The notes beneath the pieces were generated by a model, which ran no database searches, was not told the origin of the DNA, and worked only from the letters and a program-made list of their open reading frames with translations. Of a stretch of 11,058 bases of DNA, positions 1 through 11,058 are shown in pieces. Both the position numbers and the translations under genes were made by a program. The first letter of the stretch is position 1. Each line of letters begins with the position of its first letter. This stretch comes from Opitutaceae bacterium (GTDB lineage Bacteria > Verrucomicrobiota > Verrucomicrobiia > Opitutales > Opitutaceae), in assembly GCA_031254955.1 (NCBI GenBank), contig JAIRTK010000375.1, positions 1 to 11,058 on the forward strand. The letters run 5' to 3'.

Positions 1-194
1 ACACCCTCGCCGCCGCCGGCGACATCCTCCTCACCGCGAGCGCGGGCGACCTCACGCTCAACGGCGCGCTGACCTCCGCCACCGGCGGCATTACGCTCAC
101 CGCCGACGCCGGAAGCATCGCGTTGAACGACACGCTGACCGCCGCCGGCGATATCGCCCTCACTGCCGACGCCGGAAGCATCCTCGCCACCGCG
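1..194 (+). repeat. 66-bp tandem repeat block A inside the adhesin gene
   Basis: Successive units of 22 codons are in register: the unit starting at 63 is followed by one starting at 129, exactly 66 bp later, each ending in a TLN or ALN-type tripeptide. The block starts before the window and decays after about 190. Each unit would give one coil or a pair of strands of a beta-helix. Confidence 0.7.
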
Positions 195-3164
195 CAAATC
201 ACCGCCACTGGCGGCCTCTCCGCCAACGCTAACGCCATCACCGGCACCCTCGCGCTCGCCGGCGTGCAAACCGGCGGCACGCAAACTTACATCGCCGCCA
301 CCTTCACCGGAACCGGCCTGCTCCAAACCACCGCCGCCGGCGACGCCTCCGCTGCTGGTGACATCGTGTTCAATATCACCAACGCCGCGACGCTCTCCGG
401 CGCCGCGGGACGCATCGACTCCGCCGCCGCGTTCACCGCCACAGCCGGCTCGTTCATCACCGACTCCGCCGCGAACACCCTCACCGCCGCCGGCGACATC
501 GCCATCACCGCGACCGCCGGCAACCTCACGCTCAACGGCGCGGTGCGCAACACCGTCGGCGACATCACGCTCACCGCCGATGCCGGAGACATTACGCTCA
601 ATGCCGTGCTGACCTCCACCGCCGGCAACATCACCCTCGCCGCCGCCGCTGGCGACATCACGCTCAATGCCGCGCTGACCTCCGCCGTCGGCGACATCAC
701 CCTCGCCGCCGATGCCGGAGACATCACGCTCAATGCCGTGCTGACCTCCACCGCCGGCGGCATCACGCTCGCCGCCACCAATGGCGGCATCCTTCTCGCC
801 GGGGCCGGCGGCATCGCCGCCGCCGATGCCCTCATCGCCAATGCCGCCGATCCGTTCACCGTCGCCGGCGCGGCGAATGTCCTCACCGCCGGCGGCTCCA
901 TCGCCATCACGACCGCTGTCGTGGACGGGGTTGGCATCGTCTTTAATGGCGCGCTCACCTCCGCCACCGGCGGCATCACGCTCGCCACCGCTGGCGGGGA
1001 CATCGTGGTGGGAGGCCGGGTCACGTCGTTGGCGGCGGACGCGGATGTGGTTTTTTCCACCGTCGCCACCACCTCCTCCTCCGCCACTACCTCCACCACC
1101 TCCGCCTCCGCCGCCGCCGGGGGCGCGGGCATGACCACCATCAAGTCCGGCGCGTCCGTTGAGCTGGCTGGCGCGGGGCTTCGGGTGCTGGGCGGGTTCA
1201 CGCTTGAGGAGGGCGGCGGCGTGAGCACGGGGACGGCGGGGCAGGTCGTGATTGAGGCGGCGGGCCGCGAGGTGATTCTCGGCGCGCGGCTTGGCGGCGG
1301 TGGCGAGGCGGGCGACATCGGCGGCATCGGCGTCGGCGGCGCGGGTTTCATCGGCATCGCCGGGGTCGAGACTTTCGGCACGCAGTCTTTTGCGACTCAT
1401 GGCGGCGACATCGAGGTGCGCGGTTTGCTCAAGTCCGGCGCGTCGTCCGGGACTTCCATTGTTCTCGCGACCGCCGGCGCGGACGGCGCGGCGGCGGGCA
1501 TGACCACGATTCGGGCGGGCGGCGGCATCGAGGCCGCGGGCGGCCTCGTCGTGGTGACCGGCGGGTTGCTCATGGAGGAAAACACCGGGCTGGTGGTTCC
1601 CGGCGCCGGCGGGGTGGTCGTCGATGCGCTCGGGCGCCATGCGGTGTTTCACGCCGCGCTCGGGGGCGAGGACGGCGGGTTGTCCGGCTTCCACATTCGC
1701 AACGCCGGCGACATCCTTCTCTCCGGCGTCACCACCACCGGCAGCCAGTCCTATCATTTTGGCGACGAGGCGGCGATGCGGCTCGACGGCATGTTGCGCG
1801 CCACCGGGGAGGGGTCCATTTCCATCGCCAACTCCCGGACCGACTACGCGGGTTGGGCGACGATTTTTTCCACCGCGCCTGGCGGCATCCACATCGAGAC
1901 CGCGACCGGCGACATCGAGGTGAGCAGGTTCAACACCATGCTCGCCTTCGACGCCGGGTTGCCCGACGCGACCGCCGGCGACATTGTTATAAAAGCGTCG
2001 GGCGGCTCGGTGTCGCTCCCGAACATGGTCGCGTCGCACAAGATCGAATTGACCGTCTCCCAGGACGATGCCATCACGCTGCTGGGCACGCATTATCAGG
2101 CGGCGATCATGAATTGCCACGCCGTTTACGACGACGGTTCGCAGACGAGTTTCTTCCCCGTAAGGTTCTCCAGGTCGAGCGAGTCCGCGTCCACGCGCAT
2201 CATCACGGGACAAAACGAGGCGCGCATCCTCATCACGGATGGCATCGAGTTGCGGGCGTATCGCGACGGCGTCGTCTCCCGCGACACCGGGCGGATTTCC
2301 GCGGAGATGTTCCAGACCATGCCCGCCCCGGACGGGAGCCTGTTTGGCGCCTTGTATGACAGCGGGACCTCCCTGAGATGGTTGCTCGCCTCGAACGACG
2401 CCGTGCAAAACACCATCGCCGCCAACCTCTACCAACACGCGCTCGGGCTGGCCGCGCTGGAGGAAAACATGAAGACGGCGCTCGCCTCGTTCATGTCCAC
2501 CACCGATGTCGCGAACCGCATCACCGGCGCGACCAAGGACGAGCTTGCGAGCTTGGGCATTTTCTCCCGCCGGCCCTCCGTCGCGGAATACATTTCGCGC
2601 GGTTATTATCGCGGCCTTTTCCGGCAACTCATCCAGAGCGAGGAGCGCGCGCCGGAGATGTATCGGGTGGTGGACGGACGCATCTCCGAGGCGAACGCCA
2701 AGCTGGCGCTTGAGATTTACCGGGGCGTCTTCATGCGCGCGAATGGCGGCGGCGGGCTTGTTTCCCGCGTGCCCGAGATACAGGCCGCGCTCCAGTCCTG
2801 CATCCACGCCTTCCGCTCCGAAAACCTGGCGGTGTCCGACCCGGCGGAGTTCGCCCGGTTCATCCACATGCGCTCCGCCGGCAACCCGGACGCCGGGCTG
2901 GTGCGCGAGTTCATCGAGGGCGCGCGCCGGCTCTTCGCGTTTATCGGCACCATCGGCCTGACGCGCAACGAAATCGCCGCCGCCAAATCCGTGCTGCTCC
3001 GCCCGCTGCGCGCCACCGGCCTCCCGCCCGGCGCCATCCGCGACATCATCGACCCGCCGCCGCCCGCCGCCGCCGCGCGCGCCACCCCGCCGGTCCCGCC
3101 GCCGGCCTTCACCCTCAACCGGAATCCCGGCTTAAATACACTGTCACTTGATTATAATTTATGA
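1..3164 (+). CDS. Filamentous-haemagglutinin-like beta-helix repeat protein, C-terminal part (5' end outside the window)
   Basis: The reading frame is open from base 3 to the TGA at 3162-3164, so the gene begins upstream; the TTG at 123 is only an internal codon. About 1,050 residues are visible. The first third is made of short Ala/Gly/Thr-rich strand repeats of the type GDITLNA-LTS, as in right-handed beta-helix adhesins and two-partner secreted exoproteins. A motif GV-T-G-Q-Y/F occurs three times (near 260, 1368 and 1726), as is common in haemagglutinin-like proteins. From about 2070 the repeats stop. A mostly helical region follows (about 2400-3050), then a Pro/Ala-rich stretch and a short end, LSLDYNL. 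No autotransporter beta-barrel and no LPXTG or PEP-CTERM-like anchor is visible. The likely role is a secreted or surface-exposed structural or adhesive protein; the family call rests on repeat style, and the function is inferred. Confidence 0.85.
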   Translation, partial: TLAAAGDILLTASAGDLTLNGALTSATGGITLTADAGSIALNDTLTAAGDIALTADAGSILATAQITATGGLSANANAITGTLALAGVQTGGTQTYIAATFTGTGLLQTTAAGDASAAGDIVFNITNAATLSGAAGRIDSAAAFTATAGSFITDSAANTLTAAGDIAITATAGNLTLNGAVRNTVGDITLTADAGDITLNAVLTSTAGNITLAAAAGDITLNAALTSAVGDITLAADAGDITLNAVLTSTAGGITLAATNGGILLAGAGGIAAADALIANAADPFTVAGAANVLTAGGSIAITTAVVDGVGIVFNGALTSATGGITLATAGGDIVVGGRVTSLAADADVVFSTVATTSSSATTSTTSASAAAGGAGMTTIKSGASVELAGAGLRVLGGFTLEEGGGVSTGTAGQVVIEAAGREVILGARLGGGGEAGDIGGIGVGGAGFIGIAGVETFGTQSFATHGGDIEVRGLLKSGASSGTSIVLATAGADGAAAGMTTIRAGGGIEAAGGLVVVTGGLLMEENTGLVVPGAGGVVVDALGRHAVFHAALGGEDGGLSGFHIRNAGDILLSGVTTTGSQSYHFGDEAAMRLDGMLRATGEGSISIANSRTDYAGWATIFSTAPGGIHIETATGDIEVSRFNTMLAFDAGLPDATAGDIVIKASGGSVSLPNMVASHKIELTVSQDDAITLLGTHYQAAIMNCHAVYDDGSQTSFFPVRFSRSSESASTRIITGQNEARILITDGIELRAYRDGVVSRDTGRISAEMFQTMPAPDGSLFGALYDSGTSLRWLLASNDAVQNTIAANLYQHALGLAALEENMKTALASFMSTTDVANRITGATKDELASLGIFSRRPSVAEYISRGYYRGLFRQLIQSEERAPEMYRVVDGRISEANAKLALEIYRGVFMRANGGGGLVSRVPEIQAALQSCIHAFRSENLAVSDPAEFARFIHMRSAGNPDAGLVREFIEGARRLFAFIGTIGLTRNEIAAAKSVLLRPLRATGLPPGAIRDIIDPPPPAAAARATPPVPPPAFTLNRNPGLNTLSLDYNL
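471..800 (+). repeat. 66-bp tandem repeat block B inside the adhesin gene
   Basis: Units begin at 471, 537, 603, 669 and 735, exactly 66 bp apart, and encode variants of a 22-residue unit with the core GDITL and the end ITLN. The units at 603, 669 and 735 are nearly identical at DNA level, which points to recent duplication or ongoing homogenisation. The last unit decays into a Gly-rich segment near 790. The multiple of three means copy-number change would not break the frame. Confidence 0.8.
1131..1900 (+). repeat. Long diverged module (about 120 residues) repeated in the adhesin gene
   Basis: The protein motif AGMTTI at 1131 recurs at 1500 (369 bp, 123 residues later) and in weaker form as AGWATIFS at 1854 (354 bp later). 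Between these points both copies show the same order: a GG(F/L)xxEE(G/N) segment, a V(V/I)xAxGR segment, a GD-I or RNAGDI strand, the GV-T-G-Q-Y/F motif, and a G-L or GML end. The copies are well diverged in DNA, so this is an old duplication, unlike the 66-bp blocks upstream. Confidence 0.65.
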
Positions 3165-3551: not shown

Positions 3552-4613
3552 ATGAGCATCGACCTGTCCAGATTTCTCGAACCCGTCCCCGGCGACGACC
3601 CCGCCGGCGAGGACCTCGCCGCCACCGGCGCGCTCTTTGAACTCGATCGCATGATTCTCGGCAAACCCGAGACCCAGTTTTCCCAAGCCGAGGAGGCCGA
3701 CTGGCGCGCCGTGCGCGAGCGCTGCGAGGAGCTTCTCGGCCAGTCCCGCGACCTCCGCGTCGCCACCGCCCTCGCCGTCGCCCTGCTCAAGACCAAAGGA
3801 TTCCCCGGCTTCGCCGCCGGCCTCTCGCTCGTGCGCGACATGCTCGCGACCTATTGGGAAACCCTCTGGCCGAAACTCGACCCCGAGGACGGCAACGACC
3901 CGCAAGAACGCGTCAACGGCCTCAACAACCTCGCCGCCCCCATCGGCACCGCCGGCGACCCCTACAAAACCCTCGAAACCCTCCGCAAAACCCCCGTCAC
4001 CCAGTCCCGCGAGGCCGGCGCGTGGGGACTCGACGCCATCCTCGCCGCGCGCGACGGCGCGCCCCTGCTCGACGGCTCCGCCGCCCCCTCCACCGCCCTC
4101 ATCGACGGCGCGTTCTCCGACTCGCCCCCCGAGTTCCTCGCCGAAACCTCCGCCGCCATCGACTCCGCGCTGGAAAGCGCCCAGGCGCTCATCGCCTGGT
4201 TTACCGACACGCTCTCCGCCTCCACCTGGCCGACCTTCGAACCGCTCATCGCCGACCTGAAAAAACTGAAAACCGCCCTCGACTCGCACACGGGCGCGGA
4301 GGGTGGGGCAGGGGAGTCCGGCGCCGCCCAAGCGGAGACGCGGGAGGACGGCGGCGCCTTGTCCGCCGCCGATGCGTCCGCAGCCCGCCGCGCCCCCGCG
4401 GGCATCGCGACCCGCGAGGATGTCGTCCGCACCATCGACCTCATCATCGCCTACTACTCCCGCAATGAACCCTCCAGCCCCATCCCGCTCATCCTCGAAC
4501 GCGTGAAACGCCTCGTCCCCATGAACTTCATGGACATCATCAAGGACATGACCCCCGACGCCATGGACCGCGTCACCCTCATCACCGGCGCCAAGCCGCC
4601 CGAGGAATTTTGA
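3552..4613 (+). CDS. tssA: Type VI secretion system protein TssA (ImpA family, short class)
   Basis: This 353-residue protein matches short TssA/ImpA proteins in length and layout. The N-terminal ImpA_N domain covers about residues 8-130: PVPGDDPAGEDL near residue 11, SRDLRVA near 65, a YWETLWPKLDPED segment near 101, and ERVNGLNNLAAPIG near 119. A Gly/Ala-rich linker lies around 245-285. The C-terminal block (about 286-350) has the TREDVVRTID and EPSSPIPLILERVKRLV segments typical of the TssA C-terminus. TssA proteins act in the cytoplasm and help assemble baseplate, tube and sheath. The gene opens the visible T6SS cluster; tssB follows after a 113-bp gap that starts with a very GC-rich stretch. 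No Shine-Dalgarno motif precedes the ATG. The family assignment is firm; the exact subclass role is inferred. Confidence 0.95.
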   Translation: MSIDLSRFLEPVPGDDPAGEDLAATGALFELDRMILGKPETQFSQAEEADWRAVRERCEELLGQSRDLRVATALAVALLKTKGFPGFAAGLSLVRDMLATYWETLWPKLDPEDGNDPQERVNGLNNLAAPIGTAGDPYKTLETLRKTPVTQSREAGAWGLDAILAARDGAPLLDGSAAPSTALIDGAFSDSPPEFLAETSAAIDSALESAQALIAWFTDTLSASTWPTFEPLIADLKKLKTALDSHTGAEGGAGESGAAQAETREDGGALSAADASAARRAPAGIATREDVVRTIDLIIAYYSRNEPSSPIPLILERVKRLVPMNFMDIIKDMTPDAMDRVTLITGAKPPEEF

Positions 4614-4726
4614 ACCGCGCGCGCCCCGCGCCGCCGCGCCCCCTCCCCATTTTTCACGGAGCAATCCGCCGAAAGACAACACCCTCGTCAGTGCAACCAT
4701 AAACCAACAACCACCCGCAAAATAAC

Positions 4727-5242
4727 ATGGCCAAAGCAAGCAGTCAGAAATTCATCGCGCGCAACCGCGCGCCCAGAGTTCAAATCGAATACGATGTCGA
4801 ACTCTACGGTTCCGAAAAAAAGGTCCAGCTCCCGTTCGTCATGGGCGTGATGGCCGACCTTTCCGGCAACCCGGCCGAGCCGCTCAGTCCCGTGGCCGAC
4901 CGCAAATTCCTCGAAATCGACGTGGACAACTTCGACGACCGCATGAAGTCCGCCAAACCCCGCGTCACCCTCCAAGTGCCCAACACCCTCACCGGCGAAG
5001 GCAACCTCAACGTCGAACTCAACTTCGAGAGCATGGACGACTTCTCGCCCGCCGCCGTCGCGCGGAAAGTGGACGCCCTCAACAAACTCCTCACCACCCG
5101 CGAACAACTCGCCAACCTCCTCACCTACATGGACGGCAAAACCGGCGCCGAGGACCTGATCGCCAGACTCCTCAACGACCCCGCCCTCCTCAACACCGTC
5201 TCCGCCTCCGCCAAACCCGCCGACGGACAAACCGCCAACTAA
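4727..5242 (+). CDS. tssB: Type VI secretion contractile sheath small subunit TssB (VipA)
   Basis: At 171 residues it has the normal TssB length. Diagnostic parts are visible: RAPRVQIEYDVE (about 14-25), LPFVMGVMADLSGNP (35-49), the RKFLEIDVDNFDDRM signature (59-73), and the C-terminal helical part with DFSP, VDALNKLLTTREQLANLL and MDGK (105-138). TssB forms a heterodimer with TssC that polymerises into the contractile sheath around the Hcp tube in the cytoplasm. TagJ of related systems binds the N-terminal part of TssB, and a tagJ gene is present downstream. tssC starts 22 bp after the stop, so the two are almost surely co-transcribed. Confidence 0.98.
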   Translation: MAKASSQKFIARNRAPRVQIEYDVELYGSEKKVQLPFVMGVMADLSGNPAEPLSPVADRKFLEIDVDNFDDRMKSAKPRVTLQVPNTLTGEGNLNVELNFESMDDFSPAAVARKVDALNKLLTTREQLANLLTYMDGKTGAEDLIARLLNDPALLNTVSASAKPADGQTAN

Positions 5243-5264
5243 ACCCATTCCCACCATCACCACC

Positions 5265-6761
5265 ATGTCAGACGAAACCGCAGCCGCCGCACAAGGCGCG
5301 CCTCAGGCCGCCACCGCTGAATACAGCGAATTCCAGTCCCTGCTCAACAAGCAGTTCAAACCCAAGAGCGACGAGGCCAAAAGCGCCGTCGAGACCGCCG
5401 TGCAGACCCTTGCCCGGCAGGCCCTCGCCGCCACCAGCCTCGTCTCCGACAACGCCATCACCACCATCGAAAGCATCATCGCCGAGATCGACCGCAAGCT
5501 CACCGAGCAAATCAACCTCATCATCCACCATGAGGACTTCACCAAGCTCGAAGGCACCTGGCGCGGACTCCACCACCTCGTCAACAACACCGAGACCGAC
5601 GAGTCGCTGAAAATCCGCGTCCTCAACATCTCGAAAAAAGACGTCGCCAAGACCCTGAAGAAATTCAAAGGCACCGCCTGGGACCAAAGCCCGCTCTTCA
5701 AGAAACTCTACGAGGAAGAGTTCGGCATGCCCGGCGGCCAGCCCTACGGCGCCATCATCGGCGACTACTACTTCGACCACTCCGCCCCGGACATCGAAAT
5801 CCTCTCCGGCATGGCGCAAATCGCCGCCGCCGCCCACGCCCCCTTCATCACCGGCACCAGCCCCACCGTGATGAACATGGAATCCTGGCGCGAACTCGGC
5901 GACCCCCGCGACCTCACCAAAATCTTCCAGACCCCGGAATACGCCTCCTGGCGCTCCCTCCGCGAGTCGGCGGACGCGATGTATCTCGGCCTCACCATGC
6001 CGCGCTTCCTCTCCCGCATCCCCTACGGCGCCAAGACCAACCCGGTCGAGGAATTTGCCTTCGAGGAAGACATCACCGGCGCCGACCACAACAACTACGT
6101 CTGGTCCAACGCCGCCTACGCCATGGGCACCAACATCACCCGCTCCTTCAAAACCTACGGCTGGTGCGCCCGCATCCGCGGCGCCGAGTCCGGCGGCATG
6201 GTCGAAGGCCTCCCCGTCCACTCCTTCCCCACCGACGACGGCGGCGTGGACATGAAGTGCCCCACCGAAATCGCCATCGGCGACCGCCGCGAGGCCGAGC
6301 TTGCCAAGAACGGCTTCATGCCGCTCTCGCACTGGAAAAACACCGACTACGCCGTGTTCATCGGCGCCCAGTCCCTCCAGAAACCCGCCGAATACGAGGA
6401 CGCCGATGCCACCTCCAACGCCGCCCTGGCCGCCCGCCTCCCCTACCTCTTCGCCACCTGCCGCTTCGCGCACTTCCTCAAGTGCATCGTCCGCGACAAG
6501 ATCGGCTCCTTCAAGGAAAAGGAGGACATGCGCAGTTGGCTCCAGAACTGGATCATGCAGTATGTGACCAGCGACCCGACCGCCTCCGAGGATTCCAAGG
6601 CACGCTTCCCCCTCTCCGCCGCCGAGGTGGTGATGGAGGACGTGCCCGGCAACCCCGGCTATTACTCCGCCAAGTTCTACCTCCGTCCGCACTACCAGCT
6701 CGAAGGCCTCACCGTGTCGCTGCGGCTGGTCTCCAAGCTCCCCTCCGCCAAGTCCGGCTGA
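5265..6761 (+). CDS. tssC: Type VI secretion contractile sheath large subunit TssC (VipB)
   Basis: The 498-residue product has the full length of TssC1-type sheath proteins and reads intact. Recognisable segments in order are the N-terminal helices with EFQSLLNKQF (22-31), EGTWRGLHHLV (96-106), YGAIIGDYYFDH (161-172), HAPFITGTSP (191-200), ESWRELGDPRDL, WRSLRESADAMYLGLTMPRFL, the ESGGMVEGLPVHSFP stretch, and the end HYQLEGLTVSLRLVSKLPS. TssC is the main sheath subunit; contraction drives the Hcp tube outward, and the ClpV ATPase disassembles the contracted sheath. It is tightly paired with tssB. A strong hairpin begins 16 bp after the stop and may end or reduce transcription. Confidence 0.99.
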   Translation: MSDETAAAAQGAPQAATAEYSEFQSLLNKQFKPKSDEAKSAVETAVQTLARQALAATSLVSDNAITTIESIIAEIDRKLTEQINLIIHHEDFTKLEGTWRGLHHLVNNTETDESLKIRVLNISKKDVAKTLKKFKGTAWDQSPLFKKLYEEEFGMPGGQPYGAIIGDYYFDHSAPDIEILSGMAQIAAAAHAPFITGTSPTVMNMESWRELGDPRDLTKIFQTPEYASWRSLRESADAMYLGLTMPRFLSRIPYGAKTNPVEEFAFEEDITGADHNNYVWSNAAYAMGTNITRSFKTYGWCARIRGAESGGMVEGLPVHSFPTDDGGVDMKCPTEIAIGDRREAELAKNGFMPLSHWKNTDYAVFIGAQSLQKPAEYEDADATSNAALAARLPYLFATCRFAHFLKCIVRDKIGSFKEKEDMRSWLQNWIMQYVTSDPTASEDSKARFPLSAAEVVMEDVPGNPGYYSAKFYLRPHYQLEGLTVSLRLVSKLPSAKSG

Positions 6762-6776
6762 TTATAAAAAACGAAA

Positions 6777-6820
6777 ACCCATCCGGTCGCGCCGCCTCCC
6801 AAGGCGCGACCGGCATGGGT
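6777..6820 (+). terminator. Strong hairpin directly after tssC, terminator- or attenuator-like
   Basis: The left arm acccat-c-cggtcgcgcc (6777-6793) pairs with ggcgcgaccg-g-(c)-atgggt (6803-6820), giving 17 pairs with one bulged base and a 9-base loop. It is preceded by an A-run, but only a short ttt follows, so it is not a perfect intrinsic terminator. It could lower transcription into hcp or protect the 3' end of the tssBC messenger. Confidence 0.5.
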
Positions 6821-6853
6821 GCCATTTAATAACTGATGTTACGCGCCGCCATT

Positions 6854-6947
6854 GTAGCGCAGGTTTCCAAACCTGCTGACGGGCCGAAGGCCCGCCCTGA
6901 AGCAGACTGGGTTTCGAACGAAGCGCCAGCCCGCCAGTCTGCGCTAC
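6854..6947. repeat. REP-like palindromic element with 9-bp terminal inverted repeats
   Basis: The outer ends gtagcgcag (6854-6862) and ctgcgctac (6939-6947) are perfect reverse complements. Inside are further palindromes: caggttt/aaacctg (6860-6875), cgggcc-gaa-ggcccg (6880-6894), and gcagactgg with ccagtctgc (6902-6910 and 6934-6942). Nested hairpins of this kind fit an interspersed extragenic palindromic (REP/BIME-like) element. Whether it is repeated elsewhere in the genome cannot be seen from here. Confidence 0.65.
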
Positions 6948-6969
6948 GTCAGGCCGAGGCGTCCCCGCC

Positions 6970-6981
6970 GGGCCGCGGCCC
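6970..6981. repeat. Perfect 12-bp palindrome gggccgcggccc
   Basis: The sequence equals its own reverse complement and lies 22 bp after the larger palindromic element, of which it may be an extension. In a high-GC genome a short GC palindrome may also be chance. Confidence 0.3.
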
Positions 6982-7059
6982 AGCCGGAGTCCTTGCCGCC
7001 GACGGCATCCACGACGCCATGCCCATTGGTAAATCGCGTGATGATTACAAACAAACCCG

Positions 7060-7080
7060 TTCATTATAATTATAATAAAC
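7060..7080 (+). promoter_or_regulatory. AT-rich patch with two TATAAT hexamers, possible promoter of the hcp array
   Basis: Exact TATAAT hexamers occur at 7065-7070 and 7071-7076 in a nearly pure A/T patch within a GC-rich genome, 170-180 bp upstream of the first hcp. No good TTGACA-like -35 lies at 16-18 bp spacing (7048-7053 reads caaaca), so the call is tentative. Its place after the tssC hairpin would suit a separate start for the hcp genes. Confidence 0.35.
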
Positions 7081-7245
7081 TTTATCAGCCTGAGCTTGTG
7101 TGAATTCTTTTCCGCAACCAACATATGATGCTATCGGACAAACCCCGCGCACTGACACCCGCAATCCCCGCCTTCCGCCACCTCGCCTAATCGCAATGAT
7201 TGATAGTATTCACAACCCACACCCACACCCGTCTTTCCCGCCGCC

Positions 7246-7761
7246 ATGCCCCTAATCGATGCATATATGAAGTATTCCGGCGGAATTGAGGGCGGTTATA
7301 AAAGCTCCGGGAGCAAGCTTGCCGGCGACGCCGGCCTCACCGCCGACAGCCACCACGATGGCTGGTCCGAGGTGTATTCATTCAATTACACCTTGGACGA
7401 TAGCAGATCGTCGTCCATTGAGATAACCAAGCCTGCGGACAAGGCGAGCAGCCTGCTGTATCAGCGCTATTTGCAATGCCTCTTCGCGAAAGCGGTTTCT
7501 GGTTCAGCCCTCGAGGAGCACGTCATCGAGGAAATAAATGTGGAGCTGCTCCGGAGGGAGGACGGGGCGATCTCATCCTTTGCGAATTATCGTTTCAAGG
7601 AATGCCGTATTCTGTCCTACGGCATGAGCCGCGAGGCTTCCAGCGACGAACCGCCCGAGGAAAAACTCACCATCGCTTTCAATGAAATGTATATGAAATA
7701 CAGCACCCCGTCCAAGGTGGTCGCGTCGTTTGACTGGGATTTCAAAGGCAATAACGCGTAA
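7246..7761 (+). CDS. hcp: Hcp-family (TssD) type VI secretion tube protein, copy 1
   Basis: The 171-residue product has the Hcp layout: an opening strand IDAYMKY (4-10), the classic HHDGW-EVYSF segment (36-46), IEITKPADKASSLLYQRY (58-74) matching the Hcp I-TK-DKASP-L region, a strand with INVELLRRE (97-105), NYRFKECRILSYGMS (114-128), and the closing MYMKYS...ASFDWD (148-165). Hcp proteins form hexameric rings stacked as the inner tube, and are themselves secreted; some bind effectors inside the ring. The ATG at 7246 starts directly with the Hcp fold and has no Shine-Dalgarno motif. Base usage is more AT-rich than in tssABC. The product is strongly diverged from the third and fourth copies. 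Confidence 0.87.
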   Translation: MPLIDAYMKYSGGIEGGYKSSGSKLAGDAGLTADSHHDGWSEVYSFNYTLDDSRSSSIEITKPADKASSLLYQRYLQCLFAKAVSGSALEEHVIEEINVELLRREDGAISSFANYRFKECRILSYGMSREASSDEPPEEKLTIAFNEMYMKYSTPSKVVASFDWDFKGNNA

Positions 7762-7770
7762 TCTTTCCCA

Positions 7771-7784
7771 GCGGCGTGAGCCGC
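7771..7784 (+). other. Small hairpin with a GTGA (GNRA-type) loop between hcp copies 1 and 2
   Basis: gcggc (7771-7775) and gccgc (7780-7784) enclose gtga. In RNA this would be a 5-bp GC stem with a stable GUGA tetraloop, in the 37-bp gap just ahead of the second hcp start. It could affect messenger stability or translation between the two genes; no function is proven. Confidence 0.3.
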
Positions 7785-7798
7785 GCCTTGAAAACATC

Positions 7799-8419
7799 AT
7801 GCCATTCTACGCCTATATAAAAATCCCCGGAGTGGGGCAAACCGAGTCGAGCGACGATTGCTATGGAAACGGCTGGATCCCCATCGAAAAATTCGACTTG
7901 GGCGGCGAGCAGGGTGACGACTACGACGGGACGGAAGACGATACGGGAAAAAAAACGGACAGTGCCGATTTCACGAATAACGAATCGGGCGACGGTTTTT
8001 CTTCTGAGGCGGAGGACGACGTGGAAGAGCAGCAGAAGTTGGAGAAAAAAATCAGCGCGGAGGCCTCCATGAGCATTGATAAAATGCTGGATGTCTCCAG
8101 CCCCGTGCTGCATCGGCTTTGCCTGGAGCATTTGCGCGAGGAGAGCGCCTTGCTCAATGGGGCGGTGGAGCTGCACATCTGCCGTGTGGGCGGGGACAAG
8201 TCTCCCGAGCTGATCATGGCCTACCGGCTGGAAAACTGCGCCATTTCTTTGGTGGAGGTGCATGCGTCGGAAAACGGCCTGACCGAGATGGTGAAACTTA
8301 AATTTCAAAAAATCACCTGCGCCACCAACTTTGAGCAGAAGGAGTGGATGTCATCCGGCTGGGATATGGTTCGCGGGGAAAAACTGAGCGCCGGCTGGAA
8401 ACCCGCCAAACCCAAATGA
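7799..8419 (+). CDS. hcp: Hcp-family (TssD) protein, copy 2, with a long acidic insertion
   Basis: The ATG at 7799 is chosen because FYAYIKI, the first Hcp strand, begins right there; a TTG at 7730 would overlap the previous gene. The 206-residue product shows GNGWIPIEKFDL (24-34), then an unusual Asp/Glu/Ser/Thr-rich stretch (about 35-83) with no regular strands. The Hcp fold then resumes with ISAEASMSIDKMLDVSSPVLHRL (85-107), a strand LHICRVGG, YRLENCAISLV, and an end with SGWD. In ordinary Hcp the loop at this place is much shorter and takes part in ring stacking, so the insertion should alter tube assembly or bind a cargo. The tail after WD also carries an extra SAGWKPAKPK. It may be a specialised tube subunit or a secreted adaptor. 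Confidence 0.82.
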   Translation: MPFYAYIKIPGVGQTESSDDCYGNGWIPIEKFDLGGEQGDDYDGTEDDTGKKTDSADFTNNESGDGFSSEAEDDVEEQQKLEKKISAEASMSIDKMLDVSSPVLHRLCLEHLREESALLNGAVELHICRVGGDKSPELIMAYRLENCAISLVEVHASENGLTEMVKLKFQKITCATNFEQKEWMSSGWDMVRGEKLSAGWKPAKPK

Positions 8420-8420
8420 C

Positions 8421-8453
8421 CGCGCCGGCGCAATAAAATTTATCCGCGGCGCG
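8421..8453. repeat. Inverted repeat just after hcp copy 2
   Basis: The arms cgcgccg (8421-8427) and cggcgcg (8447-8453) are perfect complements, and the AT-rich loop itself holds ataaa/tttat (8433-8443). No T-run follows on the plus strand, so it is a poor intrinsic terminator; a processing or stabilising hairpin is more likely if it is functional. Confidence 0.35.
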
Positions 8454-8478
8454 CGCGTCGCGACACACACCAACACCC

Positions 8479-8504
8479 GCCCTTTCATGCGCGATAAAAA
8501 GGGC
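8479..8504 (+). promoter_or_regulatory. Leader hairpin 16 bases before hcp copy 3
   Basis: gcccttt (8479-8485) and aaagggc (8498-8504) are perfect complements with a 12-base loop; the downstream leader is the unstructured agaacagaacaacaac. Its closeness to the ATG suggests a possible role in messenger stability or translation of a tube gene that needs very high expression. Only the symmetry is seen directly. Confidence 0.35.
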
Positions 8505-8520
8505 AGAACAGAACAACAAC

Positions 8521-9063
8521 ATGGCATTCAACGCATATATCGTATTCGAGGACCCCATCATCATCGGGGAGTCCGATCCCACTGACTACAAGGAACTCTC
8601 GGGCACGCGCCCGGTCCAGATGGACTCCTATGAATTCGCCACGACCATGGCCGTGCCCGCCCTCCGCTCCGACAGCGGCGCCGGCACCTCCGGGCGCGGC
8701 AAGTTCGAGTCCTTCAAATTCTCCAAGAGGGTGGACACCGCCAGCCCCATCCTCTCCTACCACGCCGCCGCCGGCACCGTGTTCAAGCTCGTGACGGTCA
8801 GCCTCTACTTCGACACCCAAGACTCCGGCTCCTCCACCCGCACGCCCATCCGCGTGCTGGAAATGAAGATGAACCAGGCCGTCATCAGCGAAACCTCCAT
8901 CAAGGGCGCCTCCGGCGACGACCTGCCCGCCGAGGACATCACCCTCAACTTCGGCAGCATCGAATTCAAATACCAAAGCGTGAACCCGGAGACCGGGCAG
9001 GCTGGAACCAAAAGAAGCCAGTTCACTTGGTCCGCGCTCAAGAACACAGGCAACAAGGCCTGA
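8521..9063 (+). CDS. hcp: Hcp-family (TssD) type VI secretion tube protein, copy 3
   Basis: The 180-residue product begins with the strand AFNAYIVFE. It lacks the HDGW motif of copies 1 and 2, but has VQMDSYEFAT (32-41), GRGKFESFKFSKRVDTASPIL (58-78), the strand VFKLVTVSLYFDT (87-99), VLEMKMNQAVISE (112-124), GDDLPAEDITLNFGSIEFKYQ (132-152), and the closing SQFTWS (166-171). This is the typical order of Hcp strands, with the 'TASP' helix start. It has no cysteine. It is clearly homologous to copy 4 along its length (shared GR-, D-L-, SGDDLP/GDELP, FGSIEFKY/YGAIKYTY and QF-W segments). Codon use is GC-rich like tssABC, making copies 3 and 4 good candidates for the main tube subunits. Confidence 0.9.
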   Translation: MAFNAYIVFEDPIIIGESDPTDYKELSGTRPVQMDSYEFATTMAVPALRSDSGAGTSGRGKFESFKFSKRVDTASPILSYHAAAGTVFKLVTVSLYFDTQDSGSSTRTPIRVLEMKMNQAVISETSIKGASGDDLPAEDITLNFGSIEFKYQSVNPETGQAGTKRSQFTWSALKNTGNKA

Positions 9064-9110
9064 CGTTAAACCTCCCGTTTCACCCATAACAATTAACACA
9101 CCACACCATC

Positions 9111-9671
9111 ATGGCAGTTGACGCATATCTTTATATCATGGGCATGGAAAACCTCGGCGAAAGCCAGAGCGAGTATGCCAGCAAAATCGGCCTGGGCGCA
9201 ATCGAGATCACCGACTACGGCTTCGGCATCACGATGCCCATCGCGGAAAACCGTTCCGCCACGGGCGCCGCCACCACCGGGCGCGCCGACCTGACGGAAT
9301 TCGAGTGCACCAAAAACCTCGACGCCTCCACGGCCCACCTGTGCCACGCCTGCATGAGCGGGCGGCACATCGAAAAAATCACGTGCCGCATCTTCCGCTC
9401 CGTCGGCGAAACCAATGTCGAGTATGTGACATTGGAGTTCACCGACGTTCTCATCACCTCCTGCACCGTCAGCGGCTCGGGGGACGAGCTGCCCAAGGAA
9501 AGCCTCAAGTTCAGCTACGGCGCGATCAAATACACCTACACCGTGACCGACCACGCCACCGGCAAGGCGACCAGCGAAAAGGCCCAGTTCGTCTGGGACG
9601 AAATCCTGAACAAGGGCGACAAGAAGATGGCCAACCCCCCGAAGATCAACGCGCGCCTCAAGCTCGGCTGA
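9111..9671 (+). CDS. hcp: Hcp-family (TssD) type VI secretion tube protein, copy 4
   Basis: The 186-residue product is a paralogue of copy 3, 47 bp downstream of it. It has VDAYLYIMG (3-11), GESQSEY, IEITDYGFGI (31-40), GRADLTEFECTKNLDAS (57-73), LEFTDVLITSCTVSGSGDELP, YGAIKYTYTV, and the end QFVWDEILNKG followed by a basic tail KKMANPPKINARLKLG not seen in copy 3. It carries five cysteines (66, 78, 81, 92, 118), with a C-HA-C pair at 78-81, while copy 3 has none. The tail and cysteines suggest a different partner or ring interface. It stops 12 bp before tagJ, implying co-transcription. Confidence 0.9.
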   Translation: MAVDAYLYIMGMENLGESQSEYASKIGLGAIEITDYGFGITMPIAENRSATGAATTGRADLTEFECTKNLDASTAHLCHACMSGRHIEKITCRIFRSVGETNVEYVTLEFTDVLITSCTVSGSGDELPKESLKFSYGAIKYTYTVTDHATGKATSEKAQFVWDEILNKGDKKMANPPKINARLKLG

Positions 9672-9683
9672 TGACCGCCGCCC

Positions 9684-10496
9684 ATGCCCACGCCATCCGA
9701 CCACCTCAAACACGCGGATCTCGACGGGGCGCTGGCGGCCGCCAGCCAGGCCGTCCGCGCCGCCCCCGCCGACCCGAAACAGCGCCTGTTTCTCTACCAG
9801 TTGAACTGCGTGCTCGGTCGTTGGGACAAGGCGCTCAGCCAGCTCGCGATCTTCGCGGAGCTGTCCACTGATCCCGAGTCGAAACTCACCGCGCGCCTCT
9901 ACCGCACCGCCATCCAGTGCGAGGTGTTTCGCGCGGAGGTGTTTGCCGGGAAACGCCAGCCCCTGCTCCTCGGCGAACCCGAGGAGTGGGTGGCTTGTCT
10001 CATGCAGGCCTGCCAGTTGCTCGCGCAAGGCCGCGCCACCGCCGCCGCCGAACTGCGCGACCGCGCCTTCGAGGCCGCCCCCGCCACGCCCGGCGCGGTG
10101 GACGGGCGTCCCTTCGCCTGGCTCGCCGACGCCGACAACCGCCTCGGCCCGGTCATCGAGCTGTTCATGGAGGGCAAGTATTATTGGGTGCCGGTCAACC
10201 GCATCCGCCGCATCGCGCTCGAACCGCCGCACAACCTCTGCGACCTCGTCTTCGCCCCCGCTCAATTCATGTGGACCAACGGCGGCGAAGGCGCGGGCTT
10301 CATCCCCGTGCGCTACGCCGCCGCTGCCGGCGCGGACGCGAAACCCGACCCGAAGTGCCTGCTTTCCCGCCTCACGCAATGGCGCGAGCTGCCCGACGGC
10401 TTCACCGTGGGTTCGGGCCAGCGCATGCTGGCCACCGACGCGGAGGAAATCCCGCTGCTCGACTGCCGCGTGATCGATTTTCAAGCCGGCGAATAG
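9684..10496 (+). CDS. tagJ: Type VI secretion accessory protein TagJ (ImpE family)
   Basis: The 270-residue product has the two-part ImpE/TagJ layout. The N-terminal half (about 8-135) is a TPR-like helical array with LDGALAAASQAVRAAPADPKQR near 13 and RLYRTAIQCEVFRAEVF near 71. The C-terminal part has the family signature FAWLADADNRLGPVIEL (144-160), YYWVPVNRIRRIALEPP (166-182), DLVFAPAQFMWTNGGEGAGFIP and VRY. In known systems TagJ binds the N-terminal helix of the sheath protein TssB and interacts with ClpV, modulating sheath disassembly in the cytoplasm. The ATG at 9684 lies 12 bp after the last hcp; an ATG at 9671, overlapping that stop, is in another frame. The order tssB-tssC-hcp-tagJ is that of TagJ-containing T6SS loci. 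Confidence 0.95.
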   Translation: MPTPSDHLKHADLDGALAAASQAVRAAPADPKQRLFLYQLNCVLGRWDKALSQLAIFAELSTDPESKLTARLYRTAIQCEVFRAEVFAGKRQPLLLGEPEEWVACLMQACQLLAQGRATAAAELRDRAFEAAPATPGAVDGRPFAWLADADNRLGPVIELFMEGKYYWVPVNRIRRIALEPPHNLCDLVFAPAQFMWTNGGEGAGFIPVRYAAAAGADAKPDPKCLLSRLTQWRELPDGFTVGSGQRMLATDAEEIPLLDCRVIDFQAGE

Positions 10497-10618: not shown

Positions 10619-11058
10619 ATGGCCAATAAATCATACAACATGGTGCAGTTCCCTGATGTGCTGCCGATCATAATCGAATCCTATTACAAGGATTTTCCCT
10701 ATGCCAGAAACAAGAAAATCCCCGTGAGCATTTCCGTCTCCCTGCCTGAGAATATTTATGATGCGTTCACGGAAGACCCCTCGTGGATGCAGCGCGCCCA
10801 GCAGAAAATTTCCGAGGGGATCAAAAAATGGCTTAGGCTCGCAAACGAGGCTGCAAAAAACGGTGCCGGCAAGTTTTCCGAGGATCAGAGAGAGGTAAAG
10901 TATTATCTCTTCCTAGGAAAAGAAATGGAAAGCATGGAGAAGACGTTTGAAAAAGCGGCCCAAAAAGAATGCGTGAATATTATCAAGGAATATAAAAAGG
11001 AGCAGGATAAGCTTGAGGAATACAGGATCAAGGCAGCCGGGAAAATCGCCCTCTCCGG
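10619..11058 (+). CDS. Unrecognised protein, coiled-coil-rich N-terminal part (3' end outside the window)
   Basis: The frame is open from the ATG at 10619 to the window end (146 complete codons), so the stop lies outside. I do not recognise the family. The first 45 residues look globular (FPDVLPIIIESYYKDFPYAR, then a strand IPVSISVSLP). The rest is strongly helical and rich in Lys, Glu and Gln, with a likely coiled coil from about residue 88 to 137, ending in the less polar AAGKIALS. It is not TssE, which usually follows tagJ. It is more A-rich than tssABC and tagJ, and is the only gene here with a clear Shine-Dalgarno motif (aagga, 7-base spacing). Position and composition suggest an acquired cargo or accessory gene, perhaps an effector, but this is inference. 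Confidence 0.75.
   Translation, partial: MANKSYNMVQFPDVLPIIIESYYKDFPYARNKKIPVSISVSLPENIYDAFTEDPSWMQRAQQKISEGIKKWLRLANEAAKNGAGKFSEDQREVKYYLFLGKEMESMEKTFEKAAQKECVNIIKEYKKEQDKLEEYRIKAAGKIALS

What the first reader, a model, noticed from the sequence alone, without database searches (positions are those of the whole stretch)
7246..9671. Four tandem, strongly diverged Hcp paralogues between tssC and tagJ
T6SS loci normally carry one hcp at this place. Here four Hcp-fold proteins lie in a row, and they form two types: copies 1 and 2 keep the GW segment of classical Hcp, while copies 3 and 4 lack it and resemble each other. This could mean a mixed-subunit tube, alternative tubes for different cargo, or Hcp copies turned into cargo adaptors. 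The four-in-a-row order is seen directly; the functional reading is inference.
Basis: partly seen in the sequence, partly recalled or inferred. Interest (0 to 1): 0.72.

Follow-up and report, generated by a model that had tools for sequence, protein, structure and literature searches.

The report
Swappable four-gene T6SS tube cassette
A verrucomicrobial bacterium's type VI secretion "spear gun" encodes four different versions of its tube protein in a row, where most related loci have one; one version lacks and another greatly enlarges the loop that stacks the tube's rings in other bacteria, and close relatives with nearly identical machines carry very different versions, so the block is likely swapped between strains and would change what the weapon carries.

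Summary
Confirmed and extended. Four intact Hcp genes (I-IV) lie between tssC and tagJ of a canonical type VI core. Of 252 genomes of the family, 6 carry the array, all in the same order; of 78 other loci found through TssC, 69 have one Hcp, 5 two, 4 none. Each copy is its own clade.

The stretch holding ring-stacking loop L2,3 is 36-39 residues in 68 single Hcps and 38-39 in III/IV, but 21-22 in 6 of 6 I and 69-142 in 6 of 6 II.

The block looks like a recombining cassette. Ereboglobus PH5-10 and E. luteus are 92-99% identical in DNA over tssC and 98% from the start of tagJ, but mostly 63-79% across the four hcp genes. Window and G046 differ sharply over I+II only. Synonymous divergence of I and II is 3-13 times TssC's; for single Hcps it is about equal.

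Most likely III/IV build the tube and I/II add special rings for strain-specific cargo (inferred; no oligomer was modelled). Closest precedent: multi-Hcp Bacteroidales systems.

The parts
3552..4613 (+). tssA
   Evidence: NCBIfam TIGR03363 204 bits against cut-off 160.9; Pfam ImpA_N
4727..5242 (+). tssB (sheath small subunit)
   Evidence: TIGR03358 192.6 bits against 97.3
5265..6761 (+). tssC (sheath large subunit); upstream edge of the cassette
   Evidence: TIGR03355 714 bits against 271.5; DNA identity to G046 stays high to its end
6762..7245 (.). 484-bp gap at the upstream cassette edge; holds a dispersed repeat at about 6830-6948
   Evidence: 48 matches listed in the genome, itself included; alignment of 12 other copies
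7246..7761 (+). hcpI: Hcp-fold protein without the L2,3 stacking loop (21-residue span)
   Evidence: Pfam 38.3 bits; AlphaFold2 pLDDT 79.4, best PDB matches Hcp, E 1.9e-10; loop length
7799..8419 (+). hcpII: Hcp-like protein with an expanded L2,3 loop (69-residue span; residues 36-74 disordered in the model)
   Evidence: Pfam 37.5 bits; AlphaFold2 pLDDT 62.2, low, PDB matches Hcp, E 5e-7
8420..8520 (.). 101-bp gap between the two pairs; where the divergence from G046 ends
   Evidence: 81% in the window from 8450, 90% from 8600
8521..9063 (+). hcpIII: Hcp of ordinary loop length
   Evidence: Pfam 55.8 bits; PDB relatives 9qpe, 1y12
9111..9671 (+). hcpIV: Hcp of ordinary loop length, nearest of the four to solved Hcps
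   Evidence: Pfam 85.6 bits; 7fcf E 2.9e-17
9684..10496 (+). tagJ (ImpE); downstream edge of the cassette
   Evidence: Pfam ImpE 137 bits
10619..11058 (+). orfX, cut by the contig end; 530 aa in G046, no Pfam family; unknown, possible cargo

Best explanation
The window holds a block of four Hcp (type VI tube) genes in two pairs, III and IV with ordinary ring-stacking loops and I and II with that loop missing or greatly enlarged, and because the block is far more diverged between close relatives than the genes on either side it is likely swapped by recombination as a cassette, with III/IV predicted to build the tube and I/II predicted to add special rings that carry strain-specific effectors. 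Shown: four intact genes, fixed order in six genomes, four separate clades, class-specific loop lengths, sharp edges of divergence at tssC, at tagJ and (window against G046) between II and III, and excess synonymous divergence. Inferred: homologous recombination as the cause (about 0.85); III/IV as the main tube (about 0.7), from normal loops, classical sequence and codon usage nearer the sheath genes; I and II working together (about 0.6), from their shared divergence and shared exchange; cargo loading as their job (about 0.4). The mechanism proposed: a ring holding I (no loop) beside II (long, mostly disordered loop) cannot stack by the normal L2,3 contact on that face, so it would sit at a tube end or form a chamber in which II's loop contacts cargo; new alleles arriving with new effectors would keep tube and cargo matched while the sheath stays constant.
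For: Order and rarity. Clades. Loop lengths, 68 single Hcps 36-39, III 38-39, IV 38, I 21-22, II 69-142. Loop L2,3 is needed for hexamer stacking in one Hcp1 (PMC4650826, passages) and for effector delivery in avian E. coli (PMC5874247, passages). Cassette edges: G002 against G051 (Ereboglobus) 92-99% over tssC, mostly 63-79% over I-IV, 98% in the window from 13,250 in tagJ; window against G046 diverged over I-II only. dS: G002-G051 TssB .10, TssC .14, TagJ .30 against Hcp 1.24.93, 1.42, 1.51; window-G046 I 1.03, II 1.57 against III .30, IV .21, TssC .19. Control: 83 pairs of single-Hcp loci have dS(Hcp)/dS(TssC) 0.5-3.2, 3 of 83 at 2.0 or more; the 7 pairs with TssC dS under .55 have 0.6-1.3. 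Arrays, 15 pairs: I 3.1-12.8, II 3.9-8.1, III 1.5-9.9, IV 1.1-10.5. Exchange in two units: I+II joins G046 with G102 (99/97), III+IV joins G046 with the window (100/100). Codon adaptation to TssB/C: I/II .31-.45, III/IV .34-.60. One canonical tssC per genome in the window's genome, G046, G002 and G051, so four Hcps for one machine. In G002 and G051, 11 and 9 ORFs after tagJ have no BLASTP match in the other locus.
Against: No oligomer was modelled; the II model is poor (pLDDT 62). The link of alleles to cargo is only correlative, and part of the data goes against it: orfX is shared by G046 and G051 (66.5%) although all four of their Hcps are under 50% identical; accessory ORFs next to the membrane-complex genes have clearly related starts in G002 and G051; genes absent from one locus were not sought elsewhere in that genome. 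Residues at Hcp3's lumen contacts are only slightly more variable than the rest in each class (random sets as low in 15-35%). In G002, IV (.34) has lower codon adaptation than I (.43). The window's own genome, G077 and G102 are fragmented assemblies. No donor sequence was found. The tree tests were named after seeing the trees, and the I+II one is moderate (p .017). Single Hcps also outpace TssC in protein change.
Confidence: 0.45

Rival explanations
1. Mixed-subunit tube throughout: all four Hcps assemble into heterohexamers along the whole tube, as reported for Bacteroides, so I's missing loop and II's long loop would compensate for each other within each ring.
For: Multiple Hcps in one Bacteroidales locus are known (PMC4714493, passages), and Hcp heterohexamers in Bacteroides are cited by PMC13323088 (passages; the cited Nat Commun 2026 paper is not held). 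Complementary loop lengths fixed in 6 of 6 arrays. One canonical sheath gene set per genome in four of the six.
Against: I+II and III+IV have separate histories in the window-G046-G102 trio, which is hard on a four-way obligate interface; I/II have lower codon adaptation in 5 of 6 genomes.
Confidence: 0.25
2. Tube-end parts: I and/or II form the first ring on the spike or the last ring at the distal end, as tube paralogues do in extracellular contractile injection systems (recalled, Pvc1/Pvc5 and Afp1/Afp5), and III/IV are the shaft.
For: Abnormal stacking loop on I and II; low codon adaptation, as for a part needed in few copies.
Against: End parts contact conserved VgrG/TssK/TssA and should be conserved, yet I and II are the most diverged genes of the block; 69 of 78 related loci manage with one Hcp.
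Confidence: 0.15
3. Redundant copies: tandem duplicates and horizontally gained hcp genes drifting under weak constraint, with one copy doing the work.
For: High divergence; the classes of protein I and II have few relatives in 5.8 billion proteins.
Against: Four intact genes in the same order in 6 of 6 arrays across two genera, dN/dS below 1 for every pair and gene, class-fixed loop lengths and no decayed copies seen.
Confidence: 0.1
4. Exposure-driven diversification: the tube or shed Hcp is recognised by outsiders (for example a phage or a host), and alleles are exchanged to escape, with no link to cargo.
For: Allele replacement inside a conserved machine resembles surface-antigen loci.
Against: The tube is inside the sheath; no recogniser is known here; loop classes are fixed rather than free to vary.
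Confidence: 0.05

Closest known systems
Hcp/TssD of type VI systems with the tssA-B-C-hcp-tagJ-E-F-G-clpV-vgrG order (H1-T6SS type; the H1 order is recalled)
   Same: Family, core gene order, fold
   Different: Four Hcps instead of one; none reaches TIGR03344's cut-off; I lacks and II enlarges loop L2,3
Multi-Hcp T6SS of gut Bacteroidales (GA1-GA3; Hcp heterohexamers)
   Same: Several distinct Hcps in one locus (PMC4714493, passages: 400 Hcps in 115 loci, five per typical GA2 and GA3 locus)
   Different: The locus here has TssK, TssL/DotU and TssM/IcmF-type genes, whereas Bacteroidota appear to lack canonical membrane-complex homologues (PMC10781749, start of abstract); the tssC-hcp-tagJ position and the two exchange units are of this lineage
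Three Hcp homologues with divergent extended loops in avian pathogenic E. coli
   Same: Hcps in one strain differ mainly in loop L2,3, with different effectors (PMC5874247, passages)
   Different: There the genes lie in different clusters; here four are in a row, with the loop lost or expanded several-fold and the block apparently exchanged
Tube paralogues of extracellular contractile injection systems (Pvc1/Pvc5, Afp1/Afp5; recalled)
   Same: More than one tube protein in one contractile machine
   Different: Not compared by any search; those have fixed end roles, these are the most variable genes of their locus

Membership tests
Hcp/TssD (T6SS_HCP) | Pfam PF05638 above the curated cut-off | tested here: met
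   4 of 4 copies
Hcp/TssD (T6SS_HCP) | NCBIfam TIGR03344 (VI_effect_Hcp1) above cut-off | tested here: not met
   0 of 4; best is IV with 53.2 against 58.9. They are filed under the wider Pfam family, not under this subfamily.
Hcp/TssD (T6SS_HCP) | Hcp fold | tested here: met
   I: all 50 listed PDB matches are Hcps or Hcp fusions. II: same, but on a model of pLDDT 62. III and IV were not modelled; sequence matches to solved Hcps.
Hcp/TssD (T6SS_HCP) | Loop L2,3 of ordinary length (ring stacking) | tested here: not met
   Met by III and IV; not met by I and II
Hcp/TssD (T6SS_HCP) | Hexameric rings stacking into a secreted tube | not testable with these tools
   No multimer prediction on hand
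Bacteroidales-type multi-Hcp T6SS | Several distinct Hcps in one T6SS locus | tested here: met
   Four
Bacteroidales-type multi-Hcp T6SS | No canonical membrane-complex genes | tested here: not met
   TssL (DotU) and TssM (IcmF-related N) in G002, TssK in 5 of 6 genomes. The IcmF_C domain gave no match in 6 of 6 genomes.
Bacteroidales-type multi-Hcp T6SS | Hcp heterohexamers | not testable with these tools
   -
Evolved Hcp (Hcp with a C-terminal toxin) | Extra C-terminal domain | tested here: not met
   171-206 aa, Pfam finds only the Hcp domain; II's extra length lies in the L2,3 loop
Decayed tandem duplicates | Broken or variable-number copies in relatives | tested here: not met
   Four intact copies in 6 of 6 arrays

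The most novel reading that the evidence does not exclude
A type VI system with a modular, strain-swappable tube: a loop-less Hcp and a giant-loop Hcp pair up into a new kind of ring (chamber or cap) that docks strain-specific effectors, while a second Hcp pair builds the shaft, and recombination exchanges either pair or both between strains under a near-constant sheath, so that tube specificity evolves as a cassette alongside the cargo.
Probability: 0.33. Interest if true: 0.85.

Novelty: new variant of a known kind. Interest (0 to 1): 0.68.

Why it matters
The tube is usually treated as a constant part of the type VI machine and effectors as the variable part. Here the tube genes themselves are the hypervariable, apparently exchanged part between near-constant neighbours. 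If that is right, Hcp alleles are a specificity layer, and natural allele pairs (two Ereboglobus genomes with 98-99% identical sheath proteins) make the open question of what Hcp-cargo specificity and heteromeric rings are for directly testable. The natural loss and gain of loop L2,3 is also a ready-made test of how rings stack.

Tried and rejected
Rejected: chance ORFs (Pfam and conservation); decay; evolved Hcp toxins; a phage origin of the block as far as a blastn search of one phage collection can tell (no match). GW as the class mark: rejected. 'Sheath conserved, Hcp fast' as special to arrays: only partly, since single Hcps also change faster than TssC in protein, so the synonymous-site control carries the point. 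I+II as one clade: not supported by the tree (34/84, long branches). Lumen hypervariability: inconclusive. Promoters and terminators in the block: counts no higher than in shuffles. No Rfam family at gathering score and no tRNA in the window. Silent donor copies: the three least fragmented array genomes, G046, G002 and G051, show only their four Hcps. Arrays elsewhere: among 372 genomes drawn from the order, 32 have Hcp and only the window, G002 and G051 show four in a row (G046, G077 and G102 do not appear in that list).

Literature: searches. Within those searches I saw nothing on a tandem four-Hcp array in Verrucomicrobiota or on exchange of hcp cassettes; one gave one paper (seen as a listing only) and 94 none. 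Papers seen in passages: PMC13323088, PMC4714493, PMC5874247, PMC4650826. The rest were listings with the start of the abstract.
Full report
What is there. The window is a whole contig (G000:C164, 11,058 bases) of a fragmented genome, 3.58 Mb in 574 contigs, 69% complete. Reading along the + strand: the end of a giant repeat protein, tssA, tssB, tssC, a 484-bp gap, four hcp genes, tagJ and the start of orfX. All four hcp products pass the Pfam Hcp cut-off and none passes the stricter NCBIfam one. IV is nearest to solved Hcps (7fcf, E 2.9e-17), then III (9qpe, E 4e-8); I and II are distant (best E 0.0025 and 6e-6). AlphaFold2 models built on the six orthologues give an Hcp fold for I (pLDDT 79) and, at low confidence, for II (pLDDT 62), with residues 36-74 of II disordered; the Foldseek matches listed in both cases are Hcps or Hcp fusions. 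III and IV were not modelled.

Distribution. Of 252 genomes searched in the family, 24 have any Hcp and 6 have the array: the window's genome, two of its genus (G046, G077) and three of another genus (G002, G051, G102). G002's contig is Ereboglobus sp. PH5-10 (L047) and G077's is Opitutaceae bacterium Nm470_bin120 (L046) by record title and contig length. G051 is taken as Ereboglobus luteus because a protein of that name is identical to the end of its HcpII. In 78 further loci found through TssC, 69 have one Hcp next to tssC, 5 have two and 4 have none. One of the 69, L048 (Puniceicoccales, contig ending just after it), joins class I in the tree (99/95), so the array may reach beyond the family. 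In other families of the order tandem pairs occur, not fours. HcpI has no other relative, and HcpII one, in the large protein collection by single-sequence search; the HcpII profile finds ten besides the window's own, three of them from genomes already used here. That search sees only relatives sharing short exact words.

Two pairs. In a tree of 110 Hcps each of I, II, III and IV is one clade. III and IV are sisters (100/93) beside the single Hcp of a Pedosphaera (99/98), so they look like a duplication of an ordinary verrucomicrobial Hcp. I and II sit on long branches and their join is weak; profile comparison pairs them more clearly (3e-11). The clearest mark is anatomical. From the end of strand 2 to the start of the helix, across loop L2,3, 68 single Hcps have 36-39 residues, III 38-39, IV 38, I 21-22 in 6 of 6 and II 69-142 in 6 of 6. 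In another Hcp1 this loop is the contact between stacked hexamers, and two substitutions in it abolish dodecamers (PMC4650826, passages); in avian E. coli its deletion stops effector delivery (PMC5874247, passages).

A cassette. DNA identity in 150-base windows: G002 against G051, 92-99% over tssC; from the end of tssC to the end of hcpIV 63-79%, except one window with 76 aligned bases at 91% and one with too few aligned bases; then 98% at 13,250 in tagJ. Window against G046: 84-97% over tssB and tssC, mostly unalignable or 67-69% from about 6,800 to 8,450 (gap, hcpI, hcpII), then 81% at 8,450 and 88% or more from 8,600 on. Synonymous distance says the same: window-G046 TssB .27, TssC .19, TagJ .12, HcpIII .30, HcpIV .21, but HcpI 1.03 and HcpII 1.57; G002-G051 TssB .10, TssC .14, TagJ .30, but Hcp I-IV 1.24.93, 1.42, 1.51. 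As a control, 83 pairs of single-Hcp loci have dS(Hcp)/dS(TssC) from 0.5 to 3.2, with 3 of 83 at 2.0 or more; the 7 pairs with TssC dS below .55, the range of the arrays, have 0.6-1.3. In the 15 array pairs the ratio is 3.1-12.8 (I), 3.9-8.1 (II), 1.5-9.9 (III; 12 of 15 at 2.0 or more) and 1.1-10.5 (IV; 13 of 15) (dS capped at 3.0 where saturated). Faster protein change alone would not raise synonymous distance, so replacement by diverged alleles is the likely cause. The exchange seems to run in two units: I+II puts G046 with G102 (99/97; the alternative with the window p .017), III+IV puts G046 with the window (100/100; the alternative with G102 p 1.9e-11); these groups were named after seeing the trees. 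No silent copies are in the better assembled genomes, so donors are probably other strains.

The machine. In the relatives tagJ is followed by orfX (G046 and G051 only among those long enough to tell), tssE, tssF, tssG, clpV and vgrG. TssK, DotU (TssL) and an IcmF-type protein (TssM) lie some 30-40 kb upstream on the same contig in G002, and TssK does so in G046 and G051; the IcmF_C model itself found nothing. The window's genome, G046, G002 and G051 each have one canonical tssC, so four Hcps serve one machine; G077 has extra partial sheath matches and two TssK. Between G002 and G051 the core proteins TssA, B, C, TagJ, TssG, ClpV and VgrG are 90-99% identical (TssF 98-100% over part of its length; TssE was not compared because of its GTG start), the Hcps 46-67%, and 11 and 9 ORFs after tagJ have no BLASTP match in the other locus. 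Against a simple match of alleles and cargo: orfX is shared by G046 and G051 at 66.5% although all four of their Hcps are under 50%, and ORFs near the membrane genes have related starts in G002 and G051.

Likely working. III and IV have the normal loop, classical sequence and, in 5 of 6 genomes, codon usage nearer to the sheath genes than I and II (G002 is the exception), so they most likely build the tube. I and II, abnormal in the stacking loop, most diverged and together in exchange, likely form special rings, either a cargo chamber or a tube end. Cargo is preferred because I and II are the most variable genes of the block, unlike what a part docking on conserved VgrG or TssA should be, and because Hcp lumen-effector specificity is known (PMC13323088, passages). 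A check of the eight lumen contacts reported for Hcp3 was inconclusive. The step from structure to role is inference; no oligomer was modelled.

Known and new. Multiple Hcps in one system, and heterohexamers, are known for Bacteroides; loop L2,3 differences between Hcps are known in E. coli. What appears new within the searches made is the fixed four-class array in a canonical, membrane-complex-bearing system, the natural loss and expansion of L2,3 in partners, and exchange of the tube genes as a cassette.

Noticed in passing
window 6830-6948: A dispersed palindromic repeat of about 120 bp (MITE/REP-like; ends near CGTAGCGCAG...CTGCGCTACG) sits in the tssC-hcpI gap; one search lists 48 matches in this genome, itself included, and 12 other copies were aligned. 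It could serve as a recombination site at the cassette edge.
   Followed up: partly
window 3-3164; L133:1752-3710 and 3749-10180: The giant repeat protein before tssA: in G002 a ShlB-type transporter and a TPS-domain giant protein lie between the membrane-complex genes and tssA, so a two-partner secretion set seems embedded in the T6SS locus.
   Followed up: partly
L153:13920-15875, L154:1032-3095 (-), L155:12758-14845: A second sheath-like protein (652-696 aa) that fuses a VipA domain to the VipB N-terminal domain behind an acidic repetitive N-terminus and lacks the VipB_2 domain, near the start of the extended T6SS locus in G002, G051 and G046.
   Followed up: partly
L035/L036, L034, L038, L133, L134: Accessory ORFs in G002 (10), G046 (2) and G051 (2) share an N-terminal module of about 75 residues with a conserved Trp in front of different C-termini; leave-one-out E-values run from 2e-7 to 8.6, and no hit fell in the 78 non-array loci. 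A candidate effector-targeting domain.
   Followed up: partly
window 10619-11058: orfX, 530 aa in G046 and 528 aa in G051 (66.5% identical), no Pfam family; absent between tagJ and tssE in G002 and G102.
   Followed up: partly
HcpI orthologues, window 7246-7761: A DxDxDG-type stretch resembling a calcium-binding EF-hand loop (motif recalled) in HcpI of G077, G002, G051 and G102, not in the window or G046; weak troponin-like PDB matches of E 0.3-0.5 are not significant.
   Followed up: no
L040 (G102): G102 is labelled as the Ereboglobus genus, yet its locus is nearer to the window's genus (TssC 93-95% against 88%, TagJ 89% against 72%): transfer of the locus or a binning error.
   Followed up: no
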